From Austropuccinia psidii (lineage: Eukaryota > Basidiomycota > Pucciniomycetes > Pucciniales > Sphaerophragmiaceae): DNA of 64,000 nt. The notes below the pieces were generated by a model. It was given only the letters and a program-made list of their open reading frames with translations. It did no database searches and was not told the origin of the DNA. This document shows positions 26,583 to 64,000 of the stretch, one piece after another. The position numbers and the translations under genes are program-made. The DNA lies in the NCBI GenBank assembly GCA_023105745.1, contig JALGQZ010000001.1, positions 60,861,937-60,925,936 of the forward strand, given 5' to 3'. Numbering within the stretch: the stretch's first letter is position 1; the number at the start of each line of letters is the position of its first letter.

Positions 26583-26627
26583 CTAAAAATTAGGTCACAG
26601 GTAAAATATCATGGCTGGGCCCCCAAA

Positions 26628-37022: not shown

Positions 37023-40000
37023 TGTGAGCCTTAGAGGTATTTTCATATACCCAAAAGACCACAAACAAAAAAATTAATATACAAACATAAATAAAATAAA
37101 TTGATTTAAATTATTAAAATAAAAGTTGAAATATAAATATGAATTTATATACAAAGTAAAAATTTAATTATGATTTGAAAATAAAAATACATTAAATTTG
37201 AAAATTGTAAAAACAAATTTTTACTGGAAAAAATTTGGTAAAAATGAATTTTCAACAAAATTACCCAAAATAAAATTATTTTGGAAAAGTCAAATAAAAT
37301 TTATCATAACTTTTTATCTAACAAATAAACATATGAAATTTATTTTACCATTGTATTCCTTATAAAAAATTAGGTGGGGTCACCTCTGAGTGAAATTTTT
37401 GTAACTCAACTCTAAATAAGCTTAAATTAAGTTTTTTGGATTTTCTGTATAAAAGTTGAAAATCATCAAAACCTTAATTTAATTCACTTCACATGTAGTG
37501 TTAATCATGAATTTTTGTGTTAAAATTGAGGTGTTGTGTATATTTTAGAAGTTATGAGGAATTGAAGTATTTTCAATTGAATTGTCAAAATGTGTGTGTG
37601 TATTACATAAGTGAACTTTGATTTAAATATGAGGTGTCAATTATTACAGTGGTGTACTGTAAAACTAAATTAAATTACATATGTAAATTGTAAGTATAAT
37701 ACATGATGAGGAATTAAAAGAAAAAATAAATTGGAAAGATTAAATTTGGGGGAAAAAGGAACTCTAGCTCTAAGGGGGAGCCAGACCCCCGAAATCCTTG
37801 CTGACAGGTGTGAGATGTCAAAATCCACGCAAATGCTCATTACTTTTAGCCTGGAATTGAGTCACAGGGTCTGTGACTCAATTGATGAGGTTTTGATACC
37901 AACCAGGGTAGTTTTAACTGTTGCCAAGAGGGTAAAACTACCCTTAACATAAAACAATCTTGGTCAAAATAGTTTTAACTGGTTTCTACGTCTCTTGAGC
38001 TCATTCTGAGGTGCTTTGAAGGCTCTAGGCCAGGTATTAGTATAGTAATGGCTGATTCAAGGGTCTAAAATGGCTAAGCTGCCCCTTTTTTTGTCTAAAC
38101 CAGGGTTCAATGATGCCATAATTGGCTTTTCTGTTGTCAGAGTGTTTTCCACGACTGACAAGAGTAAATTTTACTTTTGGAGTAAGAAAATTGATGGTTA
38201 TAAAAGCATGTCTTCTTTGCCCCACTTTTCTCTTCATGTTAGAATCTTTTGCTTTTATAATTAGTTTAAACACTGTTAAACCAATAAATAAAATATTCCA
38301 ACCACCTTTTTTTAAAATCATTTTGAACCTTTTAACCACGTGGAAAAAATAATTATAATCATTGTTTGTAACTCTTATAATCATTTTTACCCCTGAACCA
38401 CCCCAAAAAGTGAATTAAAGCATCTTTCATCACTGTTAACTTTGTCACCTTGTTTACAAATTAATTCTGGTCACTTTTGGGCATGTTTTCTCTTTAAATA
38501 TCTTTTTAAATACTTTGTTATTTAAATAATTGCTTGCAGTTCTTTTCCCAATTAATTCCAATTCAAATTGCTCTTGAAGAAATTTCTTTTGTAGCCTTAA
38601 ATATCTCTTGTAGAGTATTTTTGGATAAATCTTTATTGTTGGTAAAACCATTATATCTGTAAGGTTTGACTATGAAACAATAAGTAAAAATTACTAATAT
38701 TTTACTTTTTGTACTATGAATGTCCTTATAAATGAAATAAATAAGATAAAAATAATTATAATAATAAAGAATTATTATAATTATGGCGTAAAAATAATTA
38801 TATTATTAATAAAATATGATAATATAATTTATATTATAAAATATAATATAATAAAATAAATATATTAATATATTCAAAGGCACTTTATTATTGTTACAAA
38901 CAAATAATAAAGGCGTAAAAAATTGTTTTTTATCAATAAAAAACAATTAATAACAATAATATTACCAATATTAAAGTTATAAATTAATATAAATACTATT
39001 TATATTAATTAAAGAATTATTAAAAGAATAATAGAGAAAAAATTATTATAATAAGAGAAAATAACCTACTTTTAATACTTAATATAATAATTTTGAGATA
39101 TTTTACGCCAAATAATGTAAATACAACTTATCCAAATTGTATTTACAATAAAAAATAGAGAAAATTACAAATATTCTTGATTTTTACGTGGAAATGAGAT
39201 TTTAGAGAGATTTTTAACAAAAACAATTAAATAAATGATTTAATCACGTCAAAATTGATGATTATGATAAGATGATCTTTGGTCTTTGATAATATAAAAG
39301 TTTTATATATAAAGAATAAAGAAATTACCTTTTTATTGTATTGATTTAATGTTTTTGATGCATCTGAGGGGAAAACAGAGTAAAAAGAGCTCTATTTATA
39401 GTAAATACTTCCCTCCTAGAGTCCAACAGGATTCTAGTAGACGTGTACTGATCATATCCACTGGGAGTAATCAATATTTTAAGGTTTGGTGATGATTACA
39501 TCATGATCAAACCATATTACATCATTATTACACCATTATTTAGAGTTATCACTATAACTCTAAGTTTGATGACTTCAAAGGCTTGGCAGAACCCCAAAAT
39601 TCGTGGATTTTATTAGTTTTAATCATAAGCTAATAGTATTAACCAATTTTATCAATCATATGACTGTTAAACTTAATTTAAGGTTACAGTGAGTGATCAT
39701 GAATAATCAAATTAAGCTCAAACTTTGATCCTTAATAACTTTTAAGATTTAAACGCTACAGCCATTCAGAGAGTGAATTCTAATATCTTGGCATAACCTT
39801 ATTATTCTGCCACAAGAATTCCATTACATCATCAAAACTCTATTTTTGATGATTTTTCTTGTAACTCATCTTTTCTGTCGAAATTTAATATTTTAAACTT
39901 AAAACTATGATTTCAAGGGGTTATACCTTGAATATTATAATAAAGAATACATCATTATTCACGGATGAACTAGTAGAATCCAACTGTCCACTTTTTTTAA

Positions 40001-40795
40001 GTTTGGACCACTTTTATAACAAAGTGGTCAACAGCTCTGTTGATTTTAATCAATAATTCCTTACAGGTTTTAACCTTGTTTATAAATTGTGAAATAAACT
40101 TCATTTCTGTATTTCTACAGTAATTACGTGATGACTTTCTTTTTGGTTCATCACTCTATCATGCATAATTCAAGAGATATTAGCTAAACTCCTTGAATAT
40201 ATGTGTTGACCAAAAAAGTGCATATATTCAGGTTAATTCCTTAAGTATTGATTTTGAAGCTTAGATTCTTAATTGTTTTATATGTGAATTTTTATGGAGA
40301 ATCCACTGGTACCATTAATTTTACATGTTGTTCCATTGGGATTTGAAATAAATAAGGATTTGTGTATTTTATAAGGTATTATTACTTATAACTTATTAAA
40401 TATTGACTTTACAGATATGCCAGAAAAATGGTATATGTGTATTTTACCATGGGGAATCCAATTGTATAATTTATTTCACATGTTTATTAATTGGTTTCTA
40501 ATTTAAACCAAGTTTTATGCAAATTTATGGTATTTTTGTAGTTTCAAGGTAATTATTTTTAATGTATAATTATATTAAATATTTTTTGTGACCTTTTTGG
40601 GTATGTGGTAATATCTCAAAGGTTCACAATATCATATTATTGTTTTATACTTATAAGGTTAAAAAAAATGAAATTGGTGTGTTTTCTCTTTAAAAATACT
40701 ATTTCTTACTATTTTTAAATAATTTTACCTTATACAAATTTGAGGACAGGAAAAGTACTGGGTATTTTATTAAAGTTTCATATCCACACCTTGCA
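37023..40795 (+). repeat. 5' LTR of element C, split by a solo LTR
   Basis: LTR-1 family: 37023-38657 and 40634-40795 (TGTGAGCC ... CACACCTTGCA) surround a B-family solo LTR. Spliced length is about 1797 bp, close to the 1806-bp 3' LTR. Confidence 0.9.
38658..40628 (-). repeat. Solo LTR-B within the C 5' LTR, target duplication ATATC
   Basis: A 1971-bp minus-strand B-family LTR, TGTAAGGTTTGACTATGAAAC ... AAAGGTTCACA, flanked by ATATC (38653-38657 and 40629-40633). It keeps the TATA box on the minus strand at 39400-39393. Confidence 0.93.
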
Positions 40796-40812
40796 TTTGG
40801 GGGCCCAGCCGT
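40796..40812 (+). promoter_or_regulatory. Primer-binding site of element C
   Basis: TTTGGGGGCCCAGCCGT follows the LTR terminus. It is identical to that of element A over these bases. Confidence 0.7.
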
Positions 40813-41013
40813 GAGATTTTACCTGTGAAATATTTTTTACTCTTTTAATCCCTTTCTTATATTGAAAAATTCAAAAAACATATAAAAAACACTTATAATT
40901 CAAAAAATCCATAAAAGAATATTTTTTTCATATTATAAGTGAGGCTTATATTTTTATTTCTTTTTTTAAATACCTTCTTTTACTTAATTAATTGGATTTT
41001 TCATTAGTTTTAG

Positions 41014-43513
41014 TGTCTGAAAACATGGTAAGACAAGAAAACATTGAAACAGCCTCAACAGTTACCAGCATTATTCCTGCCAGTACTGTTAATTCTGACC
41101 ATAATAGTACTGTTATTGTGACTCAGAATAATCAACCTGAACCAATTTCTTCTGAATTGAATAGCTTGGATATAAGTAATACTATTCAGAAAGCTAAGAA
41201 TTTGGCCAAGAGTAAGTTTTTTGACGTAAAATTACTATTTCAAAGGTTTTTAATCATAAAATATGCCTTAAACCAGATCAGAAACCAGCTATAACCCCTC
41301 ATTCAGCTCCAAGAAAGGTCATAGACATGATTATGTCAGAAGCTAATCAGTTACAGAAGGACAAGGGTAAGTCGATTACCTCCAAATTAATAAATTGTGT
41401 CATTCTGAAGCTGATAAGACTTTTTTACCTTCAAAAAGAGCTGACACTGCCACAAGAAGCCTCAGTGGACATTTACAAAGCCAGCCAGAAGGCTTACAAC
41501 AATGCATTGCAGCACAAAGAGTACAAGATCCTTGCAGATATGTGGAAAAAGTGCATGAATTTCTTACCTGACTGTGAGAAAATTTGTAGGCCATCCCAAC
41601 ACTTGCAAGGTACTCAATGGATGGCATTTATTGATTGAAAAGAAGAACATGATGCTCGTAACAGCAGAATGGAGGAAAAAAAACCCTCCGCCACCCAAGT
41701 AAGTGCCAAAAACAGCTTCAGTGGCCAGCAGCAGCAATTCCAATGTGAAAAAGCAGCCACAAGCTCAGAACAAGGGCAAAGAAAAGGCACCAGCCACAAA
41801 ACCTTACAGCCAGGGCTACAGGATTCCAAAGATTCAACAGGATGACATGGAAAATGTATTTTAGATGGCCAGAACAATGATGGAATTACAAAAGAAGGAG
41901 GAAGCCAAATTAAAATATCAGAAATTATTTCTGACATTTTTGATGCTATCCCAGAGTTGTATGAAGCTATAACGGACATAAAAAGTCATATTTCTGATAA
42001 AAATGCATCAATTTGTAACAATATTAAAACAAATACCTTGAGTCCGAGCCAAATAAATGAAGCACTTATATGTTTTGAAAAAGTTTTAAGAACAATTAAA
42101 ACTTCCAATAATGATAATTCTTTTGGCAATAAGATAAATGAACAATATGCCATTATTGAAGAATTAACAGACAAATATTCTAAATTCAATATTGATGACA
42201 TAATTGAAACAAGAATAAAACAAGACATAAGTACTATCAAAGAGGATAATAAGAAATCTCTTGATGATATTTCAAAATCATTTAATGAAGTAAAGACACA
42301 TATAATTGCCTTGAAAAAGTGTTTTGATACCTCAAAGGAGGAAATGTCAAAATTAACGATAAAGTTAAATGAGGTTATCCCTGATAAAACTAAACAAATA
42401 GAATTATGGAATGAGCTGACATATAAAGAGGATGATCATAAAAAGAACTCAATGAACTCTATACAAATGTGGCAAAATGAATTAAGAAATTCACAAAGGT
42501 GTAACAATAGTAAAATGAATGATATTGAATAATTACTTCACACCTTACCAAGAATGTCTACACCTCTGAATCAAAATGAGGGTGCATGAATTCCCAATAA
42601 AAAGATATTGGATTTTGAAAATTCACAGTTAAAAAATGAATTTTCTACTTCTTTTCATAACTTGGAACCATCAATGTGCCAAACACTCTTGAAAGAAATT
42701 CCAAAACTTAAGGAATGGCCTCACTTCAGTGGTGAAGGAGAATATGAAAATATGGAATCCATCAGAGGTATTGACATGATTGAAGAAGACTTTGAATTAC
42801 CAGACAGATTAGTAACAGCTAGATTTAACACCTTGTTTACCAAATAAGCTCACAGATGGTATATCAAATTGAGACAAGCACATAGACACCAAAGTTGGAC
42901 TTGGTGGAAAACCCAAATTATAAACAAATTGGCCAATGATGCTTGGAGGTTCAAAGTTGAAACAGCCTTTGAATCTTAAAAATTCAATTCTGATAAAGAC
43001 AACATTTTACCACGGTTTTGCCAACAAAAAGACAGACTAACAGCATTATACCCTGACATGTCAGAATTTATGATTCATAGGAAAATTTTAAGACAATGTG
43101 GAGGTGACCTAGAGAATGCTGTCAAAAGCAGGACTACTGAACAATCTTCAGGAGAAGATATTATCAATATATTAGAAGAAGTAACCACCAGAACCAAAAT
43201 TGGTTCTAGTAGGGTGAATATCAAAAAAAAGTCCAATACACCTTGGAAAGATTCTGTGGACAAAAACCCCAAATAAAATTCTAATTATTTGAAATATAAA
43301 TCTGCAGATATAATCAGGAAATTCCATATTTTCCAAAGCACCACACATTTATCCAATACATGTCCAAAAAGGGGGGAAAGCAATGAAATTAACATTGAAA
43401 AATAACCTGATGTTGAAAAAGATGATGTAATTGAAGAAAATTCAGATGATAAATGATAAATATTTTCTGAATCTTCAAAGGATATAGAAAATATCAATGC
43501 CACCTTTGACATA
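41014..43513 (+). pseudogene. Degenerate ORF1 and gag of element C
   Basis: ORF1: acceptor-like GTTTTAG ends at 41013, the ATG is at 41025, and a donor-like GTAAGT lies near 41213. The second exon at about 41280-41900 encodes SVDIYKASQKAYNNAL and YRIPKIQQDDMENVF, with stops near 41700 and 41863. Gag: a charged helical part at 41957-42532, the capsid segment at 42608-42847, more at 43058-43276, and a knuckle region near 43320-43375 whose cysteines are largely lost. The would-be Gag-Pol start after the intron is followed directly by a stop. Confidence 0.7.
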
Positions 43514-46500
43514 ATGGAATCTTATTTACACTTGCCACAGTTGAGCAATAGCCAACTTGATTTATCAAAAATTCAATATGCACAGTTGATGAAAACCAAA
43601 CCAAGCATAGGGAAAGGTTATACAGCTGGTAACTCCTGTATAAAAGAAGTGGTAATTGGCAACAAACCCACTAAACTACTACTTGATCCAGGAGAATTCT
43701 GCTCTTGTGTAGGTAAATCCTTTCTTAAGACTTGTGTACCAAATTTTGAATATCAATTGTTTCCAATTGATGGCATAAAGTTCAATAGTGCAAGTAACCC
43801 AATGAAAGCATTTGGAATATTTGAAGCTAGTGTCATATTTCAACATATAAATGGAAATTTAAGAATTACTGTTGAATTTGTTGTTATGGAAAATTGCTCT
43901 AGTACCCATTTCATATTGGGAAATGATTATTTGATCATGTATGTCATAGATTTACATAACAACAAGGACAGATACTTTACTATTGGAGACAATAAGCGCC
44001 AAAAATTTGCCTTTTTACAATTTAAAAGACAAATTACAGTGAACAAAGTATCACCAGTCAGCTTAGAGCTAGAGAAATTCAAGTCTGAACAGTTAAATGA
44101 AGCTGAAATAAGCCTTCATTTGAGTAATAAACAAGAAAATGAACTTTTTGCTCTTTTATATGACCACAAAGAAGAATTTTTTTCAGATAAAGAACCCCTG
44201 GGGGAAATTATTGGTCATGAAGTTGACATTACTCTTAATATTGAGAGACCTTATCCATAACTCTTAAAAAGACCTGCATATCCAGCAAGTCCAAAGTCAA
44301 GAGAAGCCCTGGAAATGAATATCACAGAACTTCTAAACCTTGATTTAATAAGAAAGGTGGGCCACAATGAAGAAGTAGAAAGAACTACACCAGTCATAGT
44401 GGCATGGCATAATGGAAAATCTAGAATGGTTGGGGACTTTAGAGCTCTGAACACTTACACTGTTCCAGACAGGTACCCAATACCAAAAATCCTAATTGCC
44501 CTCACCCAAATATCTCAAACAGTGTATATAAGAACTATGGATGCCCTTAAAGGATTTAATAAAAATGTAGTGACACCAAGAGCAAGGAAATACTTAAGAA
44601 TTATTGTTCATTGTGGAGTTTATGAATATTTGAGGATGCCTTTTGGAATCAAAAATGCACCTTCATACTTCCAAAGAATGATGAATGAAATTTTCCCTGA
44701 AGAGCTTTCAGAAGGATGGTTGATCATTAAAATTGATGATATTATTGTCTGCTCCAAGACTTGGGAAGAACATATGTGCAGATTATCCATAATTTTGACC
44801 AAAATACAATCTGTGAACATGGAAATCTCTTTGAAGAAATGTCATTTTGGATTTAAGGAACTCAAAGCACTGGGACATGTGTTATCTGGTCTATCCCTTG
44901 GGATTGACCAAAATAAAGTTGCAGAAGTCTTACTGAAACCTATGCCTCAAAACAAACAGGAAATCCAATAATTTTTGGGTTTTGCAGGATATTACAGGCA
45001 ACAAATTAAAGATTTTGCATCAATAGAAAAAACTCTTTATAAGTTATGTGACAAAGACACAGTATTTGAAATGACTGTTGACAGAGTAAAAGCCTTTGAA
45101 GCTTTAAGACAAGCCTTGACCACTGCTCCACTTTTACTGATGCCAGAATTTAAAATTCCCTTCAATCTTTACATTGATGCATCAGTGGATGAGCTTGGTG
45201 CTTCACTTCATCAAGTCCAGATTATCAATGACAAACCTGTTGAAGGGCCCATATTTTTCATATCCAGGCAAATAAAACCAACTGAAGCAAGATATGGAGC
45301 GAGTCAGATGGTGTGTTTATGCCTTGTTTGGGCTTTAGAAAAACTCAATTACTTTCTGGAAGGATGTGGTTTTGAAGTAATAACAGATTGTACCACTGTT
45401 AAATAACTTTTAAGCATGAAAACACCCAACAGACATATGCGCAGATGGAAAATAGCCATACAAGAGTATAGGGGAAATATGAATATTGTTCATAGAGATG
45501 GGAATATTCATAAAAATGCAGATGGACATTACCAAATAATATTGATAATCCTTCTTATGTGCCAGAAGAAGCTTCCCCACATATTCCAAAAGAAGGAATA
45601 AGTGTTACAGACTTGAACACCACCTTCTTTGAAGAAGTAAGAAAAAGCTACACTCAAGATAGGAATTGTAGCATCTTATGCCAATTAATTAACAAAGACT
45701 GTAAAGACAACTCTCTAATACATGCCTTGGATGAAGTATGGAAGAAATCGTATGATGAAGGAAGATTTGACCTACTGGATGGTATAATTTACCACAGGAC
45801 CAAGCACACATGTGTCATGACAGTTGTGCACAGGTCATTAATCAATCTTGTACTGGAAGAATGCAATGATAGCCCCTTTTCAGGACATCTGTCTGAAGAC
45901 AGAACAAGGGAAAAACTAGAGACTTGCACATGGTGGCCAATGTGGCAGAAAGATGTTGCAGAGTATTGCAAAACCTGTGACAGATGTCAAAAGGCAAATG
46001 AATCCATAGGAAAAAGACTTGGAAATATGATCAAAATCCAAGAACCCAGAAGACCTTGGGAAACTTTCCATATGGATTGGGTAACTGGCCTACCACCAGG
46101 AGGTGACAGAAGTTATAATTCTTTCCTAGTAATTGTAGACAGATTCAGTAAAGCTCCAATCCTTTTACCATGTCACAAAGATGATACAGCCATGGATACA
46201 GCTCTTCTAATATGGAATAGAGTAGTGTCATGGACTGGCATATTAACAAATATCATTGGTAACAGGGATCCCAAATTCACTTCAGCACTGTGGACAAATC
46301 TTCACCAATTATTTGGCACTAAATTTTCTTTCTCTACAGCCTACCACCCACAAACCAATGGTCTAGCTGAAAGGATGATACAAACCTTAGAAGACATGGT
46401 GAGAAGACTTTGTGCATATGGCCTTGAATTCAAAGATTGGGATGGATTAACTCATGATTGGTGTACTCTTCTACCAGCATTAGAATTGGCATATAAGACA

Positions 46501-47175
46501 TCAATTCATGCCAGTACCAATCAAACTCCTGCTATTCTACAAAAAGGATGGAATCCCAAGTTACCCCAAGATTCTTGAAGAAAAGATTTGGCTGAAGTAC
46601 ATCCTACAGCTGCCACCTCCAAATGAATTCTAGACAGAGCTAGAAAGCATGCAGTAAGATTTATGGAAGACTCATTTGCATATGCTGAAGATAAATGGGA
46701 CAAATCACATGCCACTCCAGATTTCAAAGTGGGGGATTTAGTACTAGTGTCCACTACCCACTTCAATAACATCAAAGGATGTAAAACGCTCAAAGACCTC
46801 TTTGCAGGACCTCTTGTTATTAAAACCCTCCATGGAGAAAATGCTTTTGAAGTAAAATTATCTGAAGAACTTAGTAATAAGCATCCTACATTTCCAGTGA
46901 GCTTGATAAAGCCATATGAATCTAGTGATTCTGAAGTGTTTCCCTTGAGGAATAAAGTTCCCCAAGTTATAGCTCCTATTGAGACATCTGGTATTAAGAA
47001 GATTACCAAAGTTTATAAAGAAAAAAAATTAAGAATCAAAAAAGTAAGGGAATACCTTGTTAGGTACAGTGACCCAGCTTGTGAAGATGATTGGTTAGAA
47101 GAAAAGGACATACCTGAAGCTACCAAACTTCTCAGAAAATTCAGAAATACTAGAAATAACAATATCATAAAGTAA
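43514..47175 (+). pseudogene. Degenerate pol of element C (PR-RT-RH-IN-chromodomain)
   Basis: Protease 43514-44260 has D-P-G (43685-43693) and ILGNDYL. RT 44315-44971 carries the catalytic box as KIDD (44729-44740) in place of YIDD. RNase H is at 44975-45406. The connection to integrase has lost ~13 nt near 45527 and shifts frame. Integrase 45559-46578 has the zinc finger (CKTCDRCQ) and a D,D-35-E-type core: Asp at 46075, Asp at 46267, Glu at 46369. The C-terminal part 46663-47175 has FKVGDLVLVSTTHFNNIKG and a chromodomain-like end (REYLVRYSDPACEDDWLEEK). In-frame stops at about 44258, 44969, 45404, 46576 and 46624 break it. The chromodomain places it among chromoviruses. Confidence 0.88.
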
Positions 47176-47180
47176 TATTC

Positions 47181-47199
47181 TTTTTTTAGGGGGAGGGAA
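47181..47199 (+). promoter_or_regulatory. Polypurine tract of element C
   Basis: TTTTTTTAGGGGGAGGGAA directly before the 3' LTR, the plus-strand primer site. Elements B (20322-20340) and D (63450-63467) have the same layout. Confidence 0.75.
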
Positions 47200-49005
47200 T
47201 GTGAGCCTTGGAGGTATTTTCATATACCCAAAAGACCACAAACCAAAAAAAATTAATATACAAACATAAATAAAATAAATTAATTTATATTATTAAAATA
47301 AAAATTGAAATATAAATATGAATTTGGATACAAAATCAAAAATTTCATTATAATTTAAAAATAAAAATACCTTAAATTTGAAAATTGTAAAAACACATTT
47401 CTACTTGAAAAAATTAAGTAAAAATGAATTTTCAAAAAAATTGCCCAAAATAAAATAATTTTGGAAAAATGTTAAATCAAATTTATCATAACTTTTTATC
47501 TAACAAATAAACATATAAAATTTATTTCACCATTGGATTCCTTATAAAAATTTAGGTGGCGTCACCTCTGAGTGAAATTTTTGTAACTCAACTCTAAATA
47601 AGCTTAAATTAAGTTTTTTGTATTTTATGTTTAAAAGTTGAAAATTCTCAAAACCTTAATGTAATTCACATCAAATGTACTGTTAATCATCAATTTTTGT
47701 GTCAAAGTTAGGTGTTGTGTATATTTTAGAAGTTGTGAGAAATTGAAGTATTTTCAATTGAACTCAATTGAATTGTCAAAATGTGCGCATGTATTACATA
47801 AGTGAACTTTGATTTAAATATGAGGTGTCAATTATCACAGTAGTGTACTGTGAAAGTAAATTGAATTACATATGTAAGTTGTAAGTATAATACATGATGA
47901 GGAATTAAAGGAAAAAATAAATTTGGGGGGAAAAGGAACTCTAGCTCTAAGGGGGAGCCAGACCCCCGAAATCCTTTCTGACAGGTGTGAGATGTCAAAA
48001 TACATGCAAACATTCATCACTTTTGGCCGCGAATTGAGTCACAGCTGTGACTCAATTGATGATGAGGTTTTGATACCAACCAGGGTAGTTTTAACTGTTG
48101 CCAAGAGAGTAAAACTACCCTTAAGATAAAACAATCTTAGTAAGTACACTTTGAACTGGTTTCTACGTCTCTTGCACTCATTCTGACGTGTTTTTAAGGC
48201 TCTCGGCCAGGTATTACTATAGTAATGGGTGATTTAAGGGTCTAAAATGGCTAAAACCAGCCCTTTTTTGGTCTAAACCAGGGTTCAATAATGCCACAAT
48301 TGGCTTTTCTGTTGTCAGAGTGTTTTCCATGACTGAAAAGATTAAATTTCACTTTTGGAGTAAGAAAATTGATGGCTATAAGAGAATGTCTTCTTTGCCC
48401 CACTTTTCTCTTCATGTTAGAATCTTTTCCTTTTATTAATTAGTTTAAACACTGTTAAACCAATCAATAAAAGTTTCCAACCACCTTTTTTTTAAAATTT
48501 TTTTGAACCTTTTAACCACGTGATAAAAATAATTATAATCATTTTTTGTAACTCCTATAATCATTTTTACCCCTGAACCACCCCAAAAAGTGAACTAAAG
48601 CATCTTTCATCACTATTAACTTTGTCACTTTGTTACCAAATTCATTCTGGTCCCTTTTAGGCGTGTTTTCTCTTTAAATATCTTTTTAAAGACTTTGTTC
48701 TTTAATTGCTTGCTTGCAGTTCTTTGCTCAATTAATTCCAATTGAAATTTCTCTTGAAGAAATTTCTTTTGTAGCCTTAAATATCTCTTGTAGAGTATTT
48801 TTGGATAAATCTGTATTGTTGGTAAAACAATAAATTTTTATTATATTATTCTTTTGGACTTACAAAGTTGAAAACAATAAAATTTGTGTGTTTTCTCTTT
48901 AAAAATACTATTTCTTACTATTTTTAAATAATTTTACCTTATACAAATTTTGAGGACAGGAAAAGTACTTGATATTTTATCAAAGTTTCATATCCACACC
49001 TTACA
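47200..49005 (+). repeat. 3' LTR of element C
   Basis: A 1806-bp LTR from TGTGAGCCTTGGAGG to CATATCCACACCTTACA, uninterrupted. In the first ~180 bp I count about a dozen differences from the 5' LTR. Confidence 0.92.
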
Positions 49006-52000
49006 AAAACAGTAATGGGATGGCTCCTTTTATGCCTTAAAAACATCCTATGTGATCAAAAATTCTTGAAGAGGGTTTTGACTCATTAAAGATCAAGATT
49101 AAACTTAATAAGTATAAATTCTCAGCTATAAGTATTATTTTTAATTTCAAGTAACTTGAAGCTTCATTTGGGTATATTATTTTTATATTTACTCCAAAAA
49201 TGATATATCTCTGCTATATCTATTTTTGTTGATATATTGGAAAGAATCTTTCAAGAGGTAAAGCTTTAATTTTAATTTTAATTATTTTTTAAAGTAATTT
49301 TCATCTCCTTTTAAAAATAATCAGTTAACATATTCTCAAGGGTAAATAACACATAATTTTATTGATAAGTCAAGTGTGATATTTAGTTTCTACACAAAGA
49401 AGATAAAGTTTCAAGCTGTGTGAAGAAACTTAATTCAATTCATTTCTAAATAAATTCTTTATGCATTTTTGCATTTAGTGCTTTTTTACAAATAAAAATA
49501 GCAATATACACTAAAATTTGACTTTTTATCATATTTTTCTGATTCTGCGTTCAATTTTCGGCTTCTTTACCCACCTTCAACCATTTCATAGCTCTTAAGA
49601 ACTTGATTACAAACCTGAAAATTGGAAATTACCCTTTGAAATATTTTAATTCCTGTCCAAATGGAGGATGAACCAGTTTAAACTTTAATATTCAATCAAA
49701 TCTAATGTTAAAGTTCAAATAAGGTTGAAAATAATTTAATAAAGGAAGAAATTCTGAATACTCTCTTTTGGATCCCAAATTTGGGCTAACCTGTCATCTT
49801 TTTCCATTCCCCCCCTTTTACACCCTCTTGCATGGATTTTGGCAATTTATTTTTTCAAAGCCATGCCATGGATTTAAATCAACTTTAATTTAGTCAAAAG
49901 AAATCTTACATTCTGTATGTAGAATTCTTAGAAAATCTAGTTAATATACACAAAACCTCTATTCCAACACTCTTTCTTTGCAAGTCTACATATACATGAT
50001 GAAAATTTAAATTAGTGTTGAAATTAAAATTTTTAAAAAATTGTTTAAGTTTTTTGAATACTTCTTAATTATTCTGATAAAAGTTAAAATAATCATATTT
50101 GGGTATATACCTCTATGAGGCTACCTTAGGTTCTTTTTGGGACAAAATACAATTATGACAATAATCATAAGTTTTTTTATCCAAAAAAATTAATGATAGA
50201 ATTTAATTATTCTTTTTGACTTACTTTGAAAAGTCAGTTGATGACTAAGTAAAATGTGTAAAATAGTCTTTTTAGCCTTATTGGTATGCTATAGATACCT
50301 TTTAGGCTCACATACATATTTGAAAATTGAGCTTATTAATTATTGATACTTGAAGGGTGCTGGTAGAACAAAGTAAGCTTTTAGTACAAACACATAAGCT
50401 GTAACTTTTATTTACCAAAGACTTATGTGTTTCACAAATTTATGGTCAAAAACACACAATTTTATGGTAAACCCAATTATTTAGGCCATTTTCAAAAAAG
50501 GTCTTATGCAGAATTTTTGGACCTTATTTGAATTATTTCTGCTTGGTTTTGTGGTGGCTTTTACATTACTCTCTTTGTTTCAGTATTTTTTTAATTGAAA
50601 AATTTAAAAAAATGCAAAAATAATTCAAATATTAAGAAAAAAAGATTCCACTTATGGCTTTGGTCACTTTCTTTTAGAGAAAGGTGACCTTGTTGAGAGC
50701 TGTTGAGAATTTTTCCTCAATATTTGAAAAAAAAAATGAAAGATAAAGGATTAAACCTCAAAAGAGTGTGTCCATTTTGAGGGTTTCAGATTAATCTTTT
50801 ACCATATATTCTTTTCAAAAAATTATGGAAGAATTCTCATCAGGTCACAATAGTCTCATGTTTATTTCAGAAAATAAGGTTTCCAAATACATGTGTGGAG
50901 TTTTTTCTTTGTTTTGGAATTATTCTTTCCATTTTTGTAAATGGGTTAATTTAAGAAATGATTTTAAAAAAAATACTGAAAATATGAGAGTAAAATAAAA
51001 TCCACCTTAGAGCAAGAAAAAATATTTATATAAGAGTGAATTTTTTATGGAGAATTTTGTTTAAAAATTGGCCTTTTCAAATATTTCTACCACACAATTA
51101 AATGTTTTGGCCATAAGTTGGTAAAATCACATAAGGGCCTATGTGTTTTTACTATGAGCCTATTTTATTTTACCAGCACCCTACTTGAAATACAAAGAGA
51201 AGAGAGAAATAGTTGTCTTTGGGTATTCCAAATGTATAGACCTTAATTCCTTTTCCTTTTGAGGCCAATGAAAAGGAATAAGAAATAAAACAGTAATTGT
51301 TCAGTTTCTTAGCTTTTTATTAAGGCAATATATATTTTCGTCAAAAAATTTAAATAGTTTTCAATTAGAATTGAGTAAAGGAACTTTTTGAAAAAAAGAT
51401 TGATTAAAATCTTCAGGCAATAAATATTTAATACTCTTCACAGGGATTGTGTTCAGGGTGAGAATTATTATTGGCGAGGAACTCAAAAATAAGAGTTACG
51501 TCTCCCTGAAATATTTTTTAAAATGTGGTGAACAATTAATGAAATACTATTAATTGAATTTGTGATTTAAGAAGCCAAGATTTTAATTATGAGATTTGGA
51601 AGGTCCAAAATGTCTCACTGTTATTATATTTTTCTCTAAAACATATGTTCTGGCTCAAATGGCAAAATTTGATAAAATACTAAAATGAAAAAAAAAAATT
51701 GAATTCTCTTACTAGTAAAAACCTTGTAAAGTTTCTGGGTGTTTTTTTTGAGAAAAGGGCTGTCAACCTATTCAAATACATTTTCCTAGAAAACAAACTT
51801 CATAGTTGATATTTTTGGGATAATCACCCAAATTTCTAACAAAAGTTATCTTGAGATTTTTAAATAAAATAAAGAATCACTTTTTAAAAATAATTACCAA
51901 AAAGAGAACTATTTTAACATAAATTTCAAATATCAATTTAGCTGATTCTTTTGCTTCGAAAAAAAGAAGGATTATTTACAAAATAACTTAAATTCAAGAA

Positions 52001-56220: not shown

Positions 56221-57036
56221 TTATATTAATTAACTAATAATTTCTTTTCATTCTGTTCATTCCTTCTTTATGATTTAATTCACTCATTTCATTGAAATTA
56301 TGACTCTCTAATGCTTATGAACTTTATAAGTCATCATCACCTCTCAATTTTCTCTCATTCATTCTTCATTCTAAAAATTGAAAGCTGACCCAATTTTATT
56401 TTTGTTTCTCCTTTGTAAATCTTATCTCAAATCATCATTTTTAATTCATTCATAATTCAGCATAATCTTAATTTTCATTTTATTTTCAAATTTTTCATCA
56501 AGTTATTCAGACACATTCTTCACATCACAATTCATATTTGATTCATTCTTCAAGAATTTTGATTTTTAAAGAAGAACTCAGTTGATTTTGATTTGATTGA
56601 TTGATTTGAAATGAATTGATATTGACCTCAAGAAAATTGATTGACCTGAAGATTTCATTGACTTTGCTGATTTTTCACATCAAGAATTTTGACATAAATT
56701 GATTTTGTCTCAAGAATTCATTTTGATTGATTGATTTCCTGCAAGATTTTGATTTTGATTGATTGGAAATATTGATTCATTGACTTCAAGATTTCATTTG
56801 ACATTGATTGATTGATTTTCTTTGAGTTTTCGTTTGACTTATTTGATTCATTGACTTCAAGTTTTCATTTGATACTCAATTGATTGATTTACCTGAAGAT
56901 CTCATTTTGATTTATTAATTTTTCTTCAAGATATTTATTTTGACTTTTGACTTCAAGCTTTATTTCCAATTGCCTCAAGTTTTCAACTTCAAATCTTGAT
57001 TATTGTTCATTTTATTTCATATTTATCTTTGAATAA
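56221..57036 (+). repeat. Low-complexity TTGATT-rich leader upstream of the G-family gag
   Basis: AT-rich DNA, then from about 56570 to 56980 a degenerate repeat built from TTGATTGATTT, TTCAAG and TTCATTTGA words. It sits where the leader of the G-family retrotransposon would be. No coding signal. Confidence 0.5.
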
Positions 57037-57620
57037 TGCCCATCCAACACTCACCTCCTGCAAGACAGACAAGATTTCAGGCCAGATATCATGCTGTTCT
57101 CACTACAACTCAAGGGATCCTCTTGAAGGCACCCCAGCAGCTTCTCAACTGAGGGCCAAATTGGACAGAGGACCCATTTTGGAAGGAAGGAAGAGGGCCA
57201 AGAAGATCAAGTTGATTTTCAGGAACTTCAAGGACCATCTTCAGAGGTCCTGGGGAAGATGGTGAAGAGGAGGAGGAGAATTCTGTGGAAGAGGAAGAGT
57301 CTGATGGTACTGAAGGTGTTCCTGCTCCTGTGGGGGCCTCCCAAGGTACTCAAGGACCAACTCTAGCCCAGTCTAATAAGCCTGTCTCTCATCAGCCTGA
57401 ACCATCTTTATTGGCCATTATGCAGCAAATGACTCAGATTATGGCCAATCTTCAAGAAGCTTCATCCTCTGAAGAATCAAGACCACCAGCCTTCAAGACT
57501 CCATCTATGAAAGCACCAGAATGATTTGACAGGACCCAACCCTTCAAAGTTAGAAGCTTTATTCAGTCTTGTCAACTGATTTTTCATAATGATCCGGCAA
57601 GCTTCTCTCAAGACAGAAAG
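57037..57620 (+). pseudogene. Gag N-terminal fragment of family G, truncated by element D
   Basis: ATG at 57037 begins MPIQHSPPARQTRFQARY, but a stop after ~42 codons and frame changes split it. The later part reads EEESDGTEGVPAPVGASQGT, LLAIMQQMTQIMANLQEASS and KAPE, then a stop, then FIQSCQLIFHNDPASFSQDR. This is the Gln/Ser-rich start and the beginning of the retrotransposon gag domain. The 5' LTR of element D begins at 57621 and removes the rest. The related fragment at 7839-8229 is shorter. Confidence 0.8.
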
Positions 57621-59117
57621 TGTCAGCCTGTGACTCAAAACAGAGCACCCGCATGACATCCAACATACCATAAGTAATGGTATGAGGAGTATTGGACAAA
57701 TATAGCCAATACAAGTAGATTATAAAGAGGAAACCTCCTCAAATATAATAAGAAAGGACAAAGATATGCCCTATCAAAGATAAGACCAAATAAGCAAAAA
57801 CTCTTATTCTAGCCTCTAATCTAACTTATACATATTTCATGAAACCCCAACCAGAATGGTTTTTTTCTTGAAGCTCTAAGGGAGAGCTATCCAATGGTAT
57901 CATCTATTCATCTGTAGCACTCCTAAATCAGGAGTTACCATTATACCACCTTTTTTCACCAACAACCCCTCAAAGGTGTAGGAGGGCTTGTACAAAACTG
58001 TACAAAAGTATAACCAAATTAAAGATATAAACAAGAGCTTTAATTTGAGATACATTAGACCTCTGTATCTCTTAAATTGACTGAGGGATCTTGGTTCAAA
58101 GGTTTAACAACCAAAAATACAGATATTCTGAAAACAAGAAAGTAAACAAACCCCTGTATCTTTGGCATACACTCATACAACTGTACAGTGTAACATACCA
58201 ATCTGTAGAGCTAATCAAGCCCTACAAAACTGTATCATCAGAATCCAGATATCTTCCAAATTGGAGAAGATATCTGGCATGGAAGTTTTTGAAGCCTCAT
58301 ACTGATGTACAAAATTACATCCAAAAACTGAAAACCCTTATAACTTTTGCTATTTGAAAGAAGGGTAAACATGAAGCATACCAAATTGAAGAGCTCATTA
58401 AGCCCTTCAATTCTGTGCTCTTGGATTCTTGATATCTCAAAAACTGACTAAGATATCTTGGGTGGAAGTATTTTGACCAATACTGGTCTGTACCAAACCT
58501 GTACCAACCAGTACTGGCTTGATACTTAGAATAATGGTTGTTTAAAGCTTAAACCCGCCCAGAATGACTAATATTAGTCATCCAGACACTCTGGACACGT
58601 CACAATGGTGCTGACGTGGCCTGTGAAGAGTTTTTTCACCCTGTATTGATCCAGAATGATCATTTGTGGTCCAAAAACCACAATTCTGACTATGCTGACG
58701 TCAGAATTGATGGTACAGAACCACAACCCAGCCTCCAGAGTGAAAATTTTCACTCTGTAGACGTGTGAAGAGCCTACCAGTCTTTCACAGTCCTCAGAGG
58801 AGATAAAAGCAGGTCTTTCCTCACTGGAAAAGACTCATCTTATCATGAATTAACATCCTTACGTAGTAAAACTGTCTTATACCAGTAGTACTCTTAGGAT
58901 TATATTGATATAATTAAAATAATTAATTATTGTAGTGTTTCTTTACAGTCAAAGATATTAGAGCATTGCAACCCAGGTCCTCAATAGACTCATCACCACT
59001 GTTACCACATAGCAGTAGGACCTGAAGACTTAATTTTCATTTATTTTGTGTGTGTCACAGTCATAGTGCTAGCTTGTATTTACTATTTTTAAGCTACTAC
59101 ATAGACTCACCCTGACA
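57621..59117 (+). repeat. 5' LTR of element D
   Basis: 1497 bp from TGTCAGCCTGTGACTC to CTCACCCTGACA. Unrelated in sequence to LTR-1 or LTR-B except for the terminal TG...CA. It contains several ACGT-core words (GACACGTCAC, GCTGACGTGG, AGACGTGTG) at 58590-58770 and a TATA-like GATAAAAGCAGG at about 58801, possible promoter elements. Confidence 0.93.
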
Positions 59118-59134
59118 TTTTGGGGGCCTGGCCG
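59118..59134 (+). promoter_or_regulatory. Primer-binding site of element D
   Basis: TTTTGGGGGCCTGGCCG follows the LTR. It is shared with element B although the LTRs are unrelated, consistent with the same primer and machinery. Confidence 0.7.
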
Positions 59135-59382
59135 TTGTTTTAACCTATTCTGGACCTATTTTGGCGATTTTTGGATCATCTTCACTATTTTTGAAGGTTT
59201 TTTACTATAAAAGTAAGTACAATTTCGAGTTTTTTTCATTTTTTAACTAATTTTCATCTCTTATATTATAAAAATATAATATATATTTTTTATATATTGT
59301 ATTTTATCAAAATATATTAAATAATATATTTTATTTTATTTTTGAGTATTTATACTCTTCAAAGCTTTATATTGCAATTTTC

Positions 59383-60190
59383 ACGAAAATTAATAATAAT
59401 AAATAATTATTATTAATTTTTCAAATTTATTTTTATATACAAACAGTATATTTAAATAAAAAATTATTTTTTACCAAATTGTGTAAAAATTAATTTAAAT
59501 CATAATATTTATTGTAAATCAACAATAAATATTGAAATAATAATTTTATTATTTCAATTCTTTAATATTCAAATTGAATATTATTGAAGAAGATCTTTTT
59601 TTACTCAAGTTGAGGAAAAATTGATTAAAATTTTCTTTTTTTGATAAATAATCAAAAAAAAAATCTTAATAATAATAAGTCATTGTTATCAATTTACCAC
59701 GAAAATTGATAATAATAAGTAACTATTATTAACTTCTAAAACTTATTTTTATATACAAATAGTATATTTAAATAGAAAGTATAATTAATTTAAATCATAA
59801 TATTTATTGTAAACCAACAATAAATATTTAGATAATAATTTTATTATTATTTCAATTCTTTAATATTCAAATTGAATATTATTGAAGAAGAATCTTTCTA
59901 CTCAAGTTGAGGAAAAATTCATCAATTTTAATAATAATAAGTAATTATTATTAACTTCCCAAACTTATTTTTATATACAAATAGTATATTTAAATAGAAA
60001 GCATAATTAATTTTTACCAAATTGTGTAAAATTAATTTAAATCATAATATTTATTGTAAACCAACAATAAATATTTAAATAATAATTTTATTATTATTTC
60101 AATTCTTTAATATTCAAATTGAATATTATTGAAGAAGAATCCTTTCTACTCAAGTTAAGGAAAAATTCATCAATTTTTTTAAAAAAATAA
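59383..60190 (+). repeat. Three tandem leader repeats with conserved hairpins (element D)
   Basis: Units begin at about 59383, 59700 and 59931. Each contains an 11-bp perfect stem AATATTTATTG / CAATAAATATT with an 8-base loop (59504-59533, 59799-59828, 60046-60075) and a near-palindrome AATATTCAAATTGAATATT (59564-59582, 59862-59880, 60109-60127), and ends with TACTCAAGTTGAGGAAAAATT (TTAAGG in the third). The repeats lie between the primer site and the ORF, where packaging or translation signals are expected. Confidence 0.85.
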
Positions 60191-60650
60191 AAAAATAAAA
60201 AAATAAATAAATAAAAATAAGTAAATAACTTATCAATAATATTCAAGTTTAATAATATAAACTTTTAATATTAACTACTTTACTTATAAAAATAAGTGAA
60301 ACAAAACTGTTATTTCTTCAAAAAATAAAAAATAAAATAATAATAATAATAAATAATTAAAACTCAAATATCAAACCAAACTCAGAAGAAATAACAGTAA
60401 GGAATTGGAAATTTTGTTTATTCAAATTGAATTACAAACCTTCTCCATTTTCTTTCAAAGTGGAAAAAATACATTCCATTTGAGACAAAATCACAGTGAA
60501 ATTCATCTGTACCAGCCTCAAAGACAAGGAGGCAGTACTAACTCCCAAGCAAATTGCCAAGGAGTATAAAGAAAAAATCAGTCCAAGGGCCTTTTAAAGG
60601 TAAAGAAACCTTGGAAAATACAGAATTTTTGTCTTTTGTCATTTTTTAAC

Positions 60651-63443
60651 ATGACAACTCCATTTCTCAGAGATCTTGGATACCCAAGAAATCACCCAGA
60701 AATCTGGCAAAGAAGAAACAGAGGGAGAAGGCCACCCCCTTCTGGATCAAATAACCAACAAAGGACTTATTATCAGGAAACTCCTGCTCAAAGTCCCACC
60801 CCAAACCAAATCCAGCCCAGTCCAACAAAAAAATTGGACAGATGCAGGGAAAATAACTCATATTCATGTACTCCTAAAAGGATTTTCCACATGGAGTATG
60901 GACAACAAAACCATAACCATGGGAGTATCATGGAAGGAAATTGGAATAATGAGGCAAAAAATATGAGTCAATCTTATTACTTGCCAAAAGATTCTGGAAG
61001 AAATGAAAAGTTGGAATCTCAACAGCCATTTCATACTCTCAGAAGAGACTTTAATCAGAGGGAATCAAACAGAAATCCAAGCCATAGAGAGTTCTTGGCA
61101 TATGGAAGAGCCCAATCTGATTCAGGAACACCAAGGCATGGAAGAAGAAATTCCATCTTTCCCACATCAGTCCAACAGCTACAGGACTTAAAATCCAAAG
61201 GACAATATTTCCAGGACTCTCCAGTCATCCCTGGTGGTTTCCAGCAGAGGACATGGAGCCCTAGTAGAAAACAAGAGTTCTTTCAGGAAGGAGAAGATAG
61301 AATCAGATCCTTTGATGAAACAATGAATAAAATTAGTCTAAGAGGAACACAAATCCTAAAAGACACTGTACCTACCAATAGTTTTAGCTCAGAATCAATT
61401 GATCCCCAGCTTAAGCCTATTGATGACAAAATACCCCCTCAAAAATTTGAAACCACAGATTCCAGAGGTAGTAGTTTCATATGGTCCAACATGGGTAAAT
61501 TCATGGATTGGACATATGATCATGTTCAAGAAGTGACTTCAGAAATGAAAACACTCAAGGAAGAAAATTCCTTCCAAGAAACAGTCATAGAAGACTTGAA
61601 CACAAATCTATCCAGAATCTGGGCAGAATTTGAAACTAAAAACAGACAGTTGAACTCAATACTAGAGGAACAACAAGCTGTGAGAAGAGATTTAAGAAAT
61701 ATCCAATATCAACAGGAAATCCTGGAAAAAGAAGTGGATTTTCTCTATAAAAAGGAGGAAAAAGAAGATAATTTCTTCCCTCAAACAACTCAAGAGGATA
61801 AACCAATCACCAAAGTAAAAGAGGAAGAATCAGAAAACCAAGCTCCTGAATCCCAGGATCCAAAGTTAAGGTCTGAGTCTATTTACCAAGATGGTGAGAA
61901 CCTCAGTTACTCTGAGAAACAAGCATTGAAGCAATTACCTGATGTGGTAAATTGGCCTAAATTCTCAGGAATTGGAGAATATGATCATATGGAGCTTATT
62001 GATTATATTAATGGACTTTTTGTTGATGTACCAAAGATACCAGACTACTGGATCACCACAAGACTCAACACTGCATTCAGAGGCCAGGCAAATATATGGT
62101 ACACTGAAATGAAAGAGATACATGGTAGGAAAAGCTGGCCATGGTGGAGAAACCAAATAATACAAAAGTACAGCAATGGTACTTGGATTTGGCAAAAAAC
62201 CATCTCTTTTGAGAGTGACAGATACTCTACAGAAAAAGACCCTTATGAATGGTGTCTTAAACAAACCAAAAGACTCAAATCTATTGATCCAAACATGACA
62301 ATAGAGATGAGAAATCATAAGATTCTGACAAAACTTCCAGGAGACTTAGAACATGCAGTAAAGTGCAGATGCAGCAAAATAAGCAGCATTGATGACATAG
62401 CAAATGTCATACAAGATGTCAGAAAAAAGACATCAATTGGCAGTAGTTCACCCTATAGGTCACATGATAGCAGAGAAAAACCAAAGATACTCATGGAAAA
62501 AGACCTCAAACCTACTAATGGTGAAGAAGCACCAAGAAGAAGGAACACATGCCATAACTGTGGATCACCTGACCACTATGCAAATAATTGTCCCAAGGGA
62601 AAAAAGAAAATATTTGCAATAGAGGAAGAGTCAGTAGAAGAACACATGGAGTACAAATCTGACTCTGACAGCATGGGAAATGGGCTAAGACAGGATTCAG
62701 ACAGTGGATCAGAGCCTATTGAACAATATTTACTAGAGTATGAGGATGAGAAAACAGAATCAGTCCTAGGAAACTCTTTGAAACCAGAACTCATTCAACC
62801 CAAAAATGGTGAAGACAGAAGTGGCAGAACCATTGATGCTAAAGAGTATTTGGAAGTACCCAAAACTGGTATGGCCTTTATTCATGGAGCAAAATCAAAG
62901 CTTGATGTATACATTGAAAATAAAAAGCATCCTTTGATTTTTGACACAGGAGCAAATTGCTCAGTGGTAGCCAAAGAATACTTGGACAGACACTTTCCAA
63001 TGTGGAATGCAGAGATGCTTTTAACAAAAGCAAGAAGCTTTAAAAGTGCTGCAGGCAAAGTGAAGTCACTTGGAATAATCCAAAAAATAATTATAATACC
63101 ACACAAAATGGGAAACCTCAGACTACACATTGAATTTGTGGTACTTGAAAATGCTACGTTTGATGGATTTTTAATGGGTACAGAGTACCATAAAATCTAT
63201 GGCATAAGCATACATAATTCCCTAGAGAGTTACTTGATAATTGGGCAAGACAAACAAAGAAAGTTCTACTTTGAAACTGACAACCCCAATCAAATAAAAA
63301 GATATTCCAATAGGGATTATTTAACAGAGAGAAGGAATAAACCACCAGAAAAAGACCAATGGGTAAAGCTGGATGATTCAGATAAAGATTCCTTTTTGAA
63401 AGGATCAAGAGCCTCCATGAGGACAAAAGAGTCTCATCAATGA
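60651..63443 (+). CDS. Gag-protease protein of element D (930 aa, intact)
   Basis: A single uninterrupted frame; ATG at 60651 is the first in frame. Residues 1-290 are polar and disordered-looking (Gln/Asn/Ser/Arg rich). 294-372 is a likely coiled coil (many Glu/Gln/Leu). 432-595 is a capsid-like domain with WPKFSGIGEYDHMELID and SWPWWRNQIIQKYSNGTW, aligning with gag of A, B and C. 634-647 is a perfect CCHC knuckle (CHNCGSPDHYANNC) followed by a basic run. An acidic spacer leads to a retropepsin-type protease with D-T-G-A at 765-768 and FLMGTEYHKIYG. The C-terminal ~60 residues are hydrophilic and end just before the polypurine tract. It would form virus-like particles and process itself. Reverse transcription and integration must come from another element. 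A spliced 5' extension is possible (GTAAGTAC at 59212). Confidence 0.92.
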   Translation: MTTPFLRDLGYPRNHPEIWQRRNRGRRPPPSGSNNQQRTYYQETPAQSPTPNQIQPSPTKKLDRCRENNSYSCTPKRIFHMEYGQQNHNHGSIMEGNWNNEAKNMSQSYYLPKDSGRNEKLESQQPFHTLRRDFNQRESNRNPSHREFLAYGRAQSDSGTPRHGRRNSIFPTSVQQLQDLKSKGQYFQDSPVIPGGFQQRTWSPSRKQEFFQEGEDRIRSFDETMNKISLRGTQILKDTVPTNSFSSESIDPQLKPIDDKIPPQKFETTDSRGSSFIWSNMGKFMDWTYDHVQEVTSEMKTLKEENSFQETVIEDLNTNLSRIWAEFETKNRQLNSILEEQQAVRRDLRNIQYQQEILEKEVDFLYKKEEKEDNFFPQTTQEDKPITKVKEEESENQAPESQDPKLRSESIYQDGENLSYSEKQALKQLPDVVNWPKFSGIGEYDHMELIDYINGLFVDVPKIPDYWITTRLNTAFRGQANIWYTEMKEIHGRKSWPWWRNQIIQKYSNGTWIWQKTISFESDRYSTEKDPYEWCLKQTKRLKSIDPNMTIEMRNHKILTKLPGDLEHAVKCRCSKISSIDDIANVIQDVRKKTSIGSSSPYRSHDSREKPKILMEKDLKPTNGEEAPRRRNTCHNCGSPDHYANNCPKGKKKIFAIEEESVEEHMEYKSDSDSMGNGLRQDSDSGSEPIEQYLLEYEDEKTESVLGNSLKPELIQPKNGEDRSGRTIDAKEYLEVPKTGMAFIHGAKSKLDVYIENKKHPLIFDTGANCSVVAKEYLDRHFPMWNAEMLLTKARSFKSAAGKVKSLGIIQKIIIIPHKMGNLRLHIEFVVLENATFDGFLMGTEYHKIYGISIHNSLESYLIIGQDKQRKFYFETDNPNQIKRYSNRDYLTERRNKPPEKDQWVKLDDSDKDSFLKGSRASMRTKESHQ

Positions 63444-63449
63444 TGAGCC

Positions 63450-63467
63450 TTTTTTGGAGGGAGGGTA
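63450..63467 (+). promoter_or_regulatory. Polypurine tract of element D
   Basis: TTTTTTGGAGGGAGGGTA directly before the 3' LTR, 6 bases after the Gag-protease stop codon. Confidence 0.75.
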
Positions 63468-64000
63468 TGTCAGCCTGTGACTCAAAACAGAGCACCCGCA
63501 TGACATCCAACATACCATAAGTAATGGTATGAGGAGTATTGGACAAATATAGCCAATACAAGTAGATTATAAAGAGGAAACCTCCTCAAATATAATAAGA
63601 AAGGACAAAGATATGCCCTATCAAAGATAAGACCAAATAAGCAAAAACTCTTATTCTAGCCTCTAATCTAACTTATACATATTTCATGAAACCCCAACCA
63701 GAATGGTTTTTTTCTTGAAGCTCTAAGGGAGAGCTATCCAATGGTATCATCTATTCATCTGTAGCACTCCTAAATCAGGAGTTACCATTATACCACCTTT
63801 TTTCACCAACAACCCCTCAAAGGTGTAGGAGGGCTTGTACAAAACTGTACAAAAGTATAACCAAATTAAAGATATAAACAAGAGCTTTAATTTGAGATAC
63901 ATTAGACCTCTGTATCTCTTAAATTGACTGAGGGATCTTGGTTCAAAGGTTTAACAACCAAAAATACAGATATTCTGAAAACAAGAAAGTAAACAAACCC
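63468..64000 (+). repeat. 3' LTR of element D (partial)
   Basis: The first 533 bp of the LTR, read side by side with 57621-58153: no differences seen. It continues beyond the window. Confidence 0.93.

What the first reader, a model, noticed from the sequence alone, without database searches (positions are those of the whole stretch)
57621..64000. A very young Gag-protease-only LTR retrotransposon (TR-GAG type) in a fungal genome
The element has LTRs, primer site, polypurine tract and an intact 930-aa Gag-protease ORF that ends 24 bases before the 3' LTR, so RT, RNase H and integrase are absent by design, not by decay. The 533 comparable LTR bases are identical, implying very recent transposition. 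Plant TR-GAG elements are described; a young, coding-intact relative with its own protease in a rust-like fungus is, to my knowledge, little described. It shares primer-site sequence and gag homology with the autonomous families here, which suggests trans-mobilisation.
Basis: partly seen in the sequence, partly recalled or inferred. Interest (0 to 1): 0.88.

Follow-up and report, generated by a model that had tools for sequence, protein, structure and literature searches.

The report
Young fungal Gag-protease-only jumping element family
In the genome of a rust fungus, this is a recently copied jumping element that makes only its own shell protein and protease, has lost its copying enzymes, and probably borrows them from a related complete element.

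Summary
The window lies in a 1.02-Gb genome, Austropuccinia psidii by protein matches. D is a full LTR retrotransposon: two 1497-bp LTRs, identical throughout, with a GAAAG duplication.

The 40 best-scoring D-LTR sites (of 2637 candidates) form 30 loci: 18 carry the Gag-protease ORF end directly before the 3' LTR (ten seen in full), none RT or integrase there; 12 are solo LTRs with exact 5-bp duplications. So D is a replicating family, not a one-off.

Two corrections. The last ~43 residues are a remnant of a pol C-terminus, so the family arose by in-frame loss of RT-RNase H-integrase. The better helper candidate is family E elsewhere in the genome (frames up to 1957 codons), which nearly shares LTR ends, primer site and polypurine tract with D.

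Signs of function: 1 stop where 14-16 are expected, synonymous excess significant in 12 of 36 copy pairs, and leaders almost free of ATG. Use of a helper is inferred.

Gag+protease elements are already classed as TR-GAG in plants; I found no fungal one in my searches.

The parts
57616..57620 (.). target-site duplication GAAAG (second copy lies beyond the window, seen in L010)
57621..59117 (+). 5' LTR, 1497 bp, TGTCAG...CTGACA
58802..58809 (+). GATAAAAG, TATA-like box, at LTR position 1182 in 10 of 10 copies fetched in full; TGACGT at 58612 (10 of 10) and 58696 (8 of 10). Promoter role inferred
58848..60650 (+). 1803-nt stretch without any ATG: end of LTR plus leader. Start of transcript near 58830-58850 is inferred from the box and the ATG boundary
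   Evidence: 0 observed, 20.8 expected, none of 2000 dinucleotide shuffles at 0
59118..59135 (+). primer binding site TTTTGGGGGCCTGGCCGT; tRNA not identified
59390..60167 (+). AT-rich leader repeats, spacing about 220-316 bp; leader length varies between copies (984-2074 nt)
60651..63443 (+). Gag-protease ORF, 930 aa (931 codons in the other 9 copies fetched in full, one of them with a stop)
61953..62420 (+). capsid-like helical domain, residues 435-590, 78% identical to family E
62544..62597 (+). CCHC zinc knuckle, residues 632-649
62856..63275 (+). aspartic protease, residues about 736-875, motif FDTGANCS
63312..63440 (+). remnant of a pol C-terminus, last 43 residues
63444..63467 (+). 24-nt spacer with polypurine tract GGAGGGAGGGTA
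63468..64000 (+). 3' LTR, first 533 of 1497 bp

Best explanation
D is a non-autonomous Ty3-type LTR retrotransposon family of A. psidii. SHOWN: it encodes Gag and protease, then passes in frame into the last ~43 codons of a pol; the 18 interiors examined share this 3' layout (ten in full); integration leaves 5-bp duplications; stops are far rarer than neutral change would give. INFERRED: the ORF has been kept by selection since pol was lost; the transcript starts near 58830-58850, is scanned over an ATG-poor leader and translated to Gag-protease; this Gag packages its own RNA; reverse transcriptase, RNase H and integrase come from Gag-Pol of an autonomous relative, most likely family E, whose capsid domain is similar enough to co-assemble and whose LTR ends, primer site and polypurine tract nearly match those of D.
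For: Layout in 10 of 10 LTR pairs fetched; exact duplications in 9 of 10 (the tenth, L015, abuts another D ORF end); frame open in 9 of 10. Eight more loci with the ORF end and tail before the 3' LTR, and 12 solo LTRs with duplications. Selection: 1 stop on a tree of about 263 substitutions against 14-16 expected, P about 1e-5; synonymous share above neutral in 30 of 36 pairs, P<0.05 in 12 of 36 (ORF spectrum) or 20 of 36 (LTR spectrum), pairs not independent. Leaders: 1 ATG in 14,882 bases over ten copies, 16.4 expected in the window copy's leader alone. Tail against the E frame: 16 of 43 identical, blastp E 4e-8 with the tail of L013 and 8e-4 with the window's D protein (one-sequence search space); 60 bp across last codons, stop and tract 88% identical. 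Family E: 38 scored copies, 34 without a stop in the matched parts. Alignment scores D-E against D-A: LTR start 35 vs 22 (maximum 40), LTR end 22 vs 18 (30), primer site 17 vs 14 (18), tract 23 vs 17 (24). Capsid 78% and protease 54% for D-E, whereas E-A is 44/42, E-P0011 87/86, E-P0016 83/84.
Against: No transcript, particle or new insertion was seen. E is only 41% identical over Gag-protease and most of the LTR does not align, so D and E split long ago; a closer autonomous partner may exist among the LTR candidates not scored (2637, 40 scored). Pairs such as L013-L018 (22 synonymous to 63 nonsynonymous, P 0.31) and L011-L013 (4 to 25) show no synonymous excess, and changes private to single copies run 30 to 77 overall, with 0 synonymous in L009, L011, L013 and L014; the signal sits on older branches and in L010 and L018. 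Loss of new ATGs on recent branches is weak (1 seen, 5.4 expected, P 0.028). The window copy's own tail is not convincing against the A-family profile (214 of 5000 shuffles). The capsid contrast rests on few comparisons.
Confidence: 0.78

Rival explanations
1. D is the non-autonomous half of a pair whose autonomous partner carries the same LTR and a full pol, and E is just a cousin.
For: Sharing LTRs with a living partner is common for non-autonomous families (recalled); only 40 of 2637 first-look LTR candidates were scored.
Against: In 18 of 18 loci with an interior the Gag-protease ORF end adjoins the 3' LTR. The best-scoring named relatives are MF-1 proteins, 57% over 87% of residues 400-930 at best; higher identities, up to 73%, cover only shorter parts (120 of 138 listed).
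Confidence: 0.25
2. D Gag-protease serves another end, for instance interfering with other elements, and recent copies arise by RT from any Ty3 element with no Gag match needed.
For: Stops are rare in the ORF; the primer site resembles that of more than one family.
Against: LTR-complete copies with duplications point to ordinary replication; LTR start, primer site and tract are nearer to E than to A.
Confidence: 0.1
3. D is a chance collection of decayed or misassembled copies.
For: L012 has one stop; L015 abuts another element.
Against: Same layout and same spacer in 10 of 10 full copies; exact duplications in 21 of 22 insertions with both ends seen (9 of 10 pairs, 12 of 12 solo).
Confidence: 0.02

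Closest known systems
TR-GAG elements of plants (original paper, Chaparro et al. 2015, not held; seen in passages of PMC6022998 and PMC8704663)
   Same: Two LTRs, one ORF for Gag or Gag plus protease, no RT or integrase; an Arabidopsis one was seen to transpose (PMC8704663)
   Different: Fungal host; Ty3-type Gag-protease with a retained pol C-terminus; AT-rich, ATG-poor leader of variable length
Copia families with a single gag-like ORF in the brown alga Ectocarpus (PMC12477816, passages)
   Different: Copia; D is Ty3-type with protease
Family E of the same genome (one copy read, L057)
   Same: Gag order, capsid, primer site, tract, LTR ends, pol C-terminus
   Different: E has RT, RNase H and integrase in one frame; most of the LTR does not align
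Family A in the window (copy at 1-5408 and others)
   Same: Related Gag-protease (31% over 628 residues), similar primer site
   Different: Has pol; no LTR similarity found at E 1e-10; 476-nt leader

Membership tests
LTR retrotransposon | Two LTRs with TG..CA ends, primer site, polypurine tract, target duplication | tested here: met
TR-GAG (definition in PMC6022998: Gag only, or Gag and protease) | Gag or Gag plus protease as only domains between the LTRs | tested here: met
   the 43-residue pol remnant gave no Pfam domain
TR-GAG | A multi-copy family of that layout (my criterion) | tested here: met
   10 of 10 full copies and 8 of 8 part-read loci
TR-GAG | Transposes with enzymes from another element | not testable with these tools
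   candidate helper E only
Ty3/Gypsy superfamily | Pol order protease-RT-RNase H-integrase | tested here: inconclusive
   D lacks RT; RT, RNase H and integrase follow in that order in P0106, to which E matches in the same order
LARD / TRIM | No coding capacity | tested here: not met
   930-codon ORF with few stops across copies
BARE-2 type (defined from recall) | Gag-defective, pol-bearing | tested here: not met
   D is the reverse: gag present, pol enzymes absent

The most novel reading that the evidence does not exclude
D is a long-lived 'shell-making satellite' of the E retrotransposon: after losing pol it diverged for a long time in promoter, matrix and nucleocapsid regions, but selection kept its capsid domain, LTR ends, primer site and tract compatible, so that it co-assembles with E and is copied by E. 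Proteins P0072/P0075/P0079 of strain MF-1 (capsid 74-78% like E, zinc knuckle degraded, no protease in the gene models) would be a second such lineage.
Probability: 0.33. Interest if true: 0.72.

Novelty: new member of a known kind. Interest (0 to 1): 0.5.

Why it matters
It carries the plant TR-GAG category into a rust fungus with a young, multi-copy family, and the rarity of stops and of upstream ATGs suggests that its Gag-protease is used rather than carried along. D and E together offer a natural pair in which the rules of sharing enzymes between retrotransposons can be read from sequence, in a genome reported to be over 90% transposable elements (PMC8063080, abstract passage).

Tried and rejected
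Plasmid collection with the D protein: no match. One IMG/VR pattern scan: no match. Leader as an intron: a GTAAGT site lies at 59213; lack of ATG argues for a scanned leader, but splicing is not excluded. Tail as PR-RT linker: at chance by profile, although the full-length alignment of D with E runs on weakly into it. The first tail profile was made from 2 sequences by a bad filter and discarded. Against the 102-sequence A-family profile the window copy's own tail is weak (244 and 214 of 5000 shuffles); it lacks one residue found in the other nine. tRNA genes in the window: none, so the primer tRNA is not named. An exact-pattern copy count and a genome survey of the P0079 lineage did not complete. 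Residues 1-400 of D had one relative in the protein search, P0001, over 29%, although alignment shows N-terminal homologs. The structure model is poor overall (mean pLDDT 54); only its capsid and protease parts were used.

Full report
What was checked. The window holds LTR-ORF-LTR as described: 533 of 533 comparable LTR bases identical, a 930-aa ORF at 60651-63443, a zinc knuckle, protease matches below Pfam's cut-offs and no RT, RNase H or integrase. The modelled protease part matches Ddi1 and retroviral proteases. The organism is Austropuccinia psidii by protein matches: the A-family pol end in the window is 87% identical over 92% to a protein of strain MF-1 (120 of 2113 listed), and 119 of the 120 listed relatives of D residues 400-930 are MF-1 proteins (120 of 138 listed). 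The other, P0001, has no name; it is 98% identical over the whole region and ends with the same residues.

Genome survey. The window maps to G000:C1:60861937-60925936 of a 1,015,390,075-base assembly. A 534-base probe of the D LTR gave 2637 first-look candidates, of which 40 were scored (41 rows). Twenty rows are ten LTR pairs; the ten were fetched in full. The other twenty LTR rows were resolved from flanks and short fetches. Eight have the D ORF end, through the tail, directly before the 3' LTR (L005, L019, L023-L027, and L021/L049 from its 5' LTR); in these only about 950-1480 bp of the ORF were seen. Twelve are solo LTRs with exact 5-bp duplications (L006, L037-L045, L020/L046, L022/L048). 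One row, an 86% LTR piece beside L009, was left out of the count. So 18 of 30 loci have an interior, 18 of 18 of D type at the 3' end, and 12 of 30 are solo. Nothing is known of the candidates not scored.

The ten complete copies. LTR 1494-1498 bp, 0-10 mismatches between the two LTRs of a copy; leader 984-2074 nt; ORF 2793 nt in the window copy and 2796 in the other nine; the same 24-nt spacer in ten of ten; the first 20 bases after the LTR the same in nine of ten. Frame open in nine of ten (L012 has one stop). Duplications exact in nine of ten; upstream of the 5' LTR of L015 lies another D ORF end. With the rate of 1.05e-9 per site per year used for rust LTRs in PMC12210899 (methods section read), 0 of 1497 gives an upper 95% bound near 1 million years for the window copy and 10 of 1495 about 3 million years (my arithmetic).

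Is the ORF used? Random substitutions on this ORF would give 3.3 (ORF spectrum) or 4.1 (spectrum of 46 LTR differences) nonsynonymous per synonymous change and 5-6% stops. On a tree of the ten copies with about 263 substitutions that means 14-16 stops; one was seen. Synonymous share: over the 36 pairs of the nine open copies it lies above neutral in 30, with P<0.05 in 12 (ORF spectrum) or 20 (LTR spectrum); the pairs are not independent. Examples (synonymous to nonsynonymous): L010-L018 34 to 53, L010-L016 24 to 27, L009-L018 31 to 56; against the reading, L013-L018 22 to 63 (P 0.31) and L011-L013 4 to 25. Changes private to one copy sum to 30 synonymous and 77 nonsynonymous, with none synonymous in four copies, so the excess sits on older branches and in L010 and L018. 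That is what selection on the replicating lineage plus neutral change after insertion would give, but it is moderate evidence. Pooled pN/pS is 0.51. The copies share the protease-to-tail junction, so their divergence came after pol loss unless the deletion arose more than once.

Leader. 0 ATG in 1803 nt of the window copy against 20.8 expected, none of 2000 shuffles at zero; 1 ATG in 14,882 leader bases over ten copies, although leader repeats vary in number. New ATGs on recent branches: 1 seen, 5.4 expected, P 0.028. The A copy at 1-5408 has 0 ATG in its 476-nt leader (6.4 expected), but two other A copies in the window carry ATGs after the LTR, and the E leader has 1 ATG in 944 nt (no expectation computed). 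So an ATG-poor leader is at least partly a habit of the lineage that D has kept. The last ATG of the LTR is at position 1225 and a GATAAAAG box at 1182 in ten of ten.

Where D came from. Gag-protease homology with A ends at residue 874, before RT. The last 43 residues match the pol C-terminus of family E: 16 of 43 identical, blastp E 4e-8 with the tail of L013 and 8e-4 with the window's D protein, both in a one-sequence search space; 60 bp over the last codons, stop and tract are 88% identical. Against a 102-sequence A-family C-terminus profile the family tails score above all but 13-24 of 5000 shuffles, the window copy's tail above all but 214; against a 32-sequence PR-RT linker profile all are at chance. 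An in-frame loss of RT, RNase H and integrase from an E-like ancestor explains this. Alignment from the first residue shows that D Gag is not cut at its N-terminus.

The likely helper. Searching the genome with P0106 gave 122,228 first-look candidates, 38 scored, all of one family (E) with frames up to 1957 codons; 34 of 38 list no stop in any matched part. One copy (L057) has a 1411-bp 5' LTR, 99% identical to its 3' LTR over 1373 aligned bp, and duplication ACACT. Alignment scores (match 1, mismatch 0, gap -0.5) of D with E are higher than of D with A at LTR start, LTR end, primer site and tract (35/22/17/23 against 22/18/14/17, maxima 40/30/18/24), while most of the rest of the LTR does not align. 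Identity by domain for D-E: N-terminus 31%, coil 16-18%, capsid 78%, nucleocapsid linker 41%, protease 54%; E-A has 21, 27, 44, 30, 42; E-P0011 has capsid 87 and protease 86, E-P0016 83 and 84. The uneven D-E pattern fits a Gag kept able to co-assemble with E; it is suggestive, from few pairs. That E supplies enzymes to D is inference.

Compared with print. Inpactor defines TR-GAG as Gag only or Gag with protease (PMC6022998, passages), so Gag-protease is not new in itself. An Arabidopsis TR-GAG transposed in ddm1 (PMC8704663, passages). Incomplete pol is common in fungal LTR elements (PMC3248453, passages). Searches for a fungal case: 'TR-GAG' with 'retrotransposon', with 'fungal' (one plant review), 'gag-only' with 'fungi' (none), rust and non-autonomous terms, further combinations. 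I saw no fungal TR-GAG in these listings, of which titles and abstract starts were seen; the library lacks most subscription papers. The passages shown of three rust genome papers, PMC8063080, PMC12210899 and PMC12774611, did not mention one.

Noticed in passing
proteins P0072, P0075, P0079 (A. psidii MF-1): A second Gag lineage with capsid 74-78% like E, degraded zinc knuckle and no protease in the gene models; may be another Gag-only family. The genome search did not complete.
   Followed up: partly
window 60651-63443: The ORF holds 1 CpG in 2793 bases (0-3 in the ten copies); the other CpGs of the element lie mostly in the LTR promoter part and the primer-site end of the leader.
   Followed up: partly
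L015: A D ORF end lies directly before its 5' LTR, so two D elements appear to stand in a row sharing an LTR.
   Followed up: partly
L009 63-399 and L003 1-1470: A D-type ORF end (97%) followed by a D-like LTR piece of only 88% identity, cut by the younger D insertion: an older or divergent D subfamily.
   Followed up: no
L057 8362: This E copy has TT instead of TG at the start of its 3' LTR while the 5' LTR has TG.
   Followed up: no
window 1-5408, 15767-28420, 37023-49008: Several A-family copies and LTR pieces (LTR about 1.8 kb), some decayed or nested.
   Followed up: partly
window 32527-33339: 270-aa ankyrin-repeat ORF (Ank_4 E 8e-10) amid repeats.
   Followed up: no
window 57000-57620: D seems to sit inside the decayed gag of yet another retrotransposon family; my reading of the sequence, not tested.
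   Followed up: no
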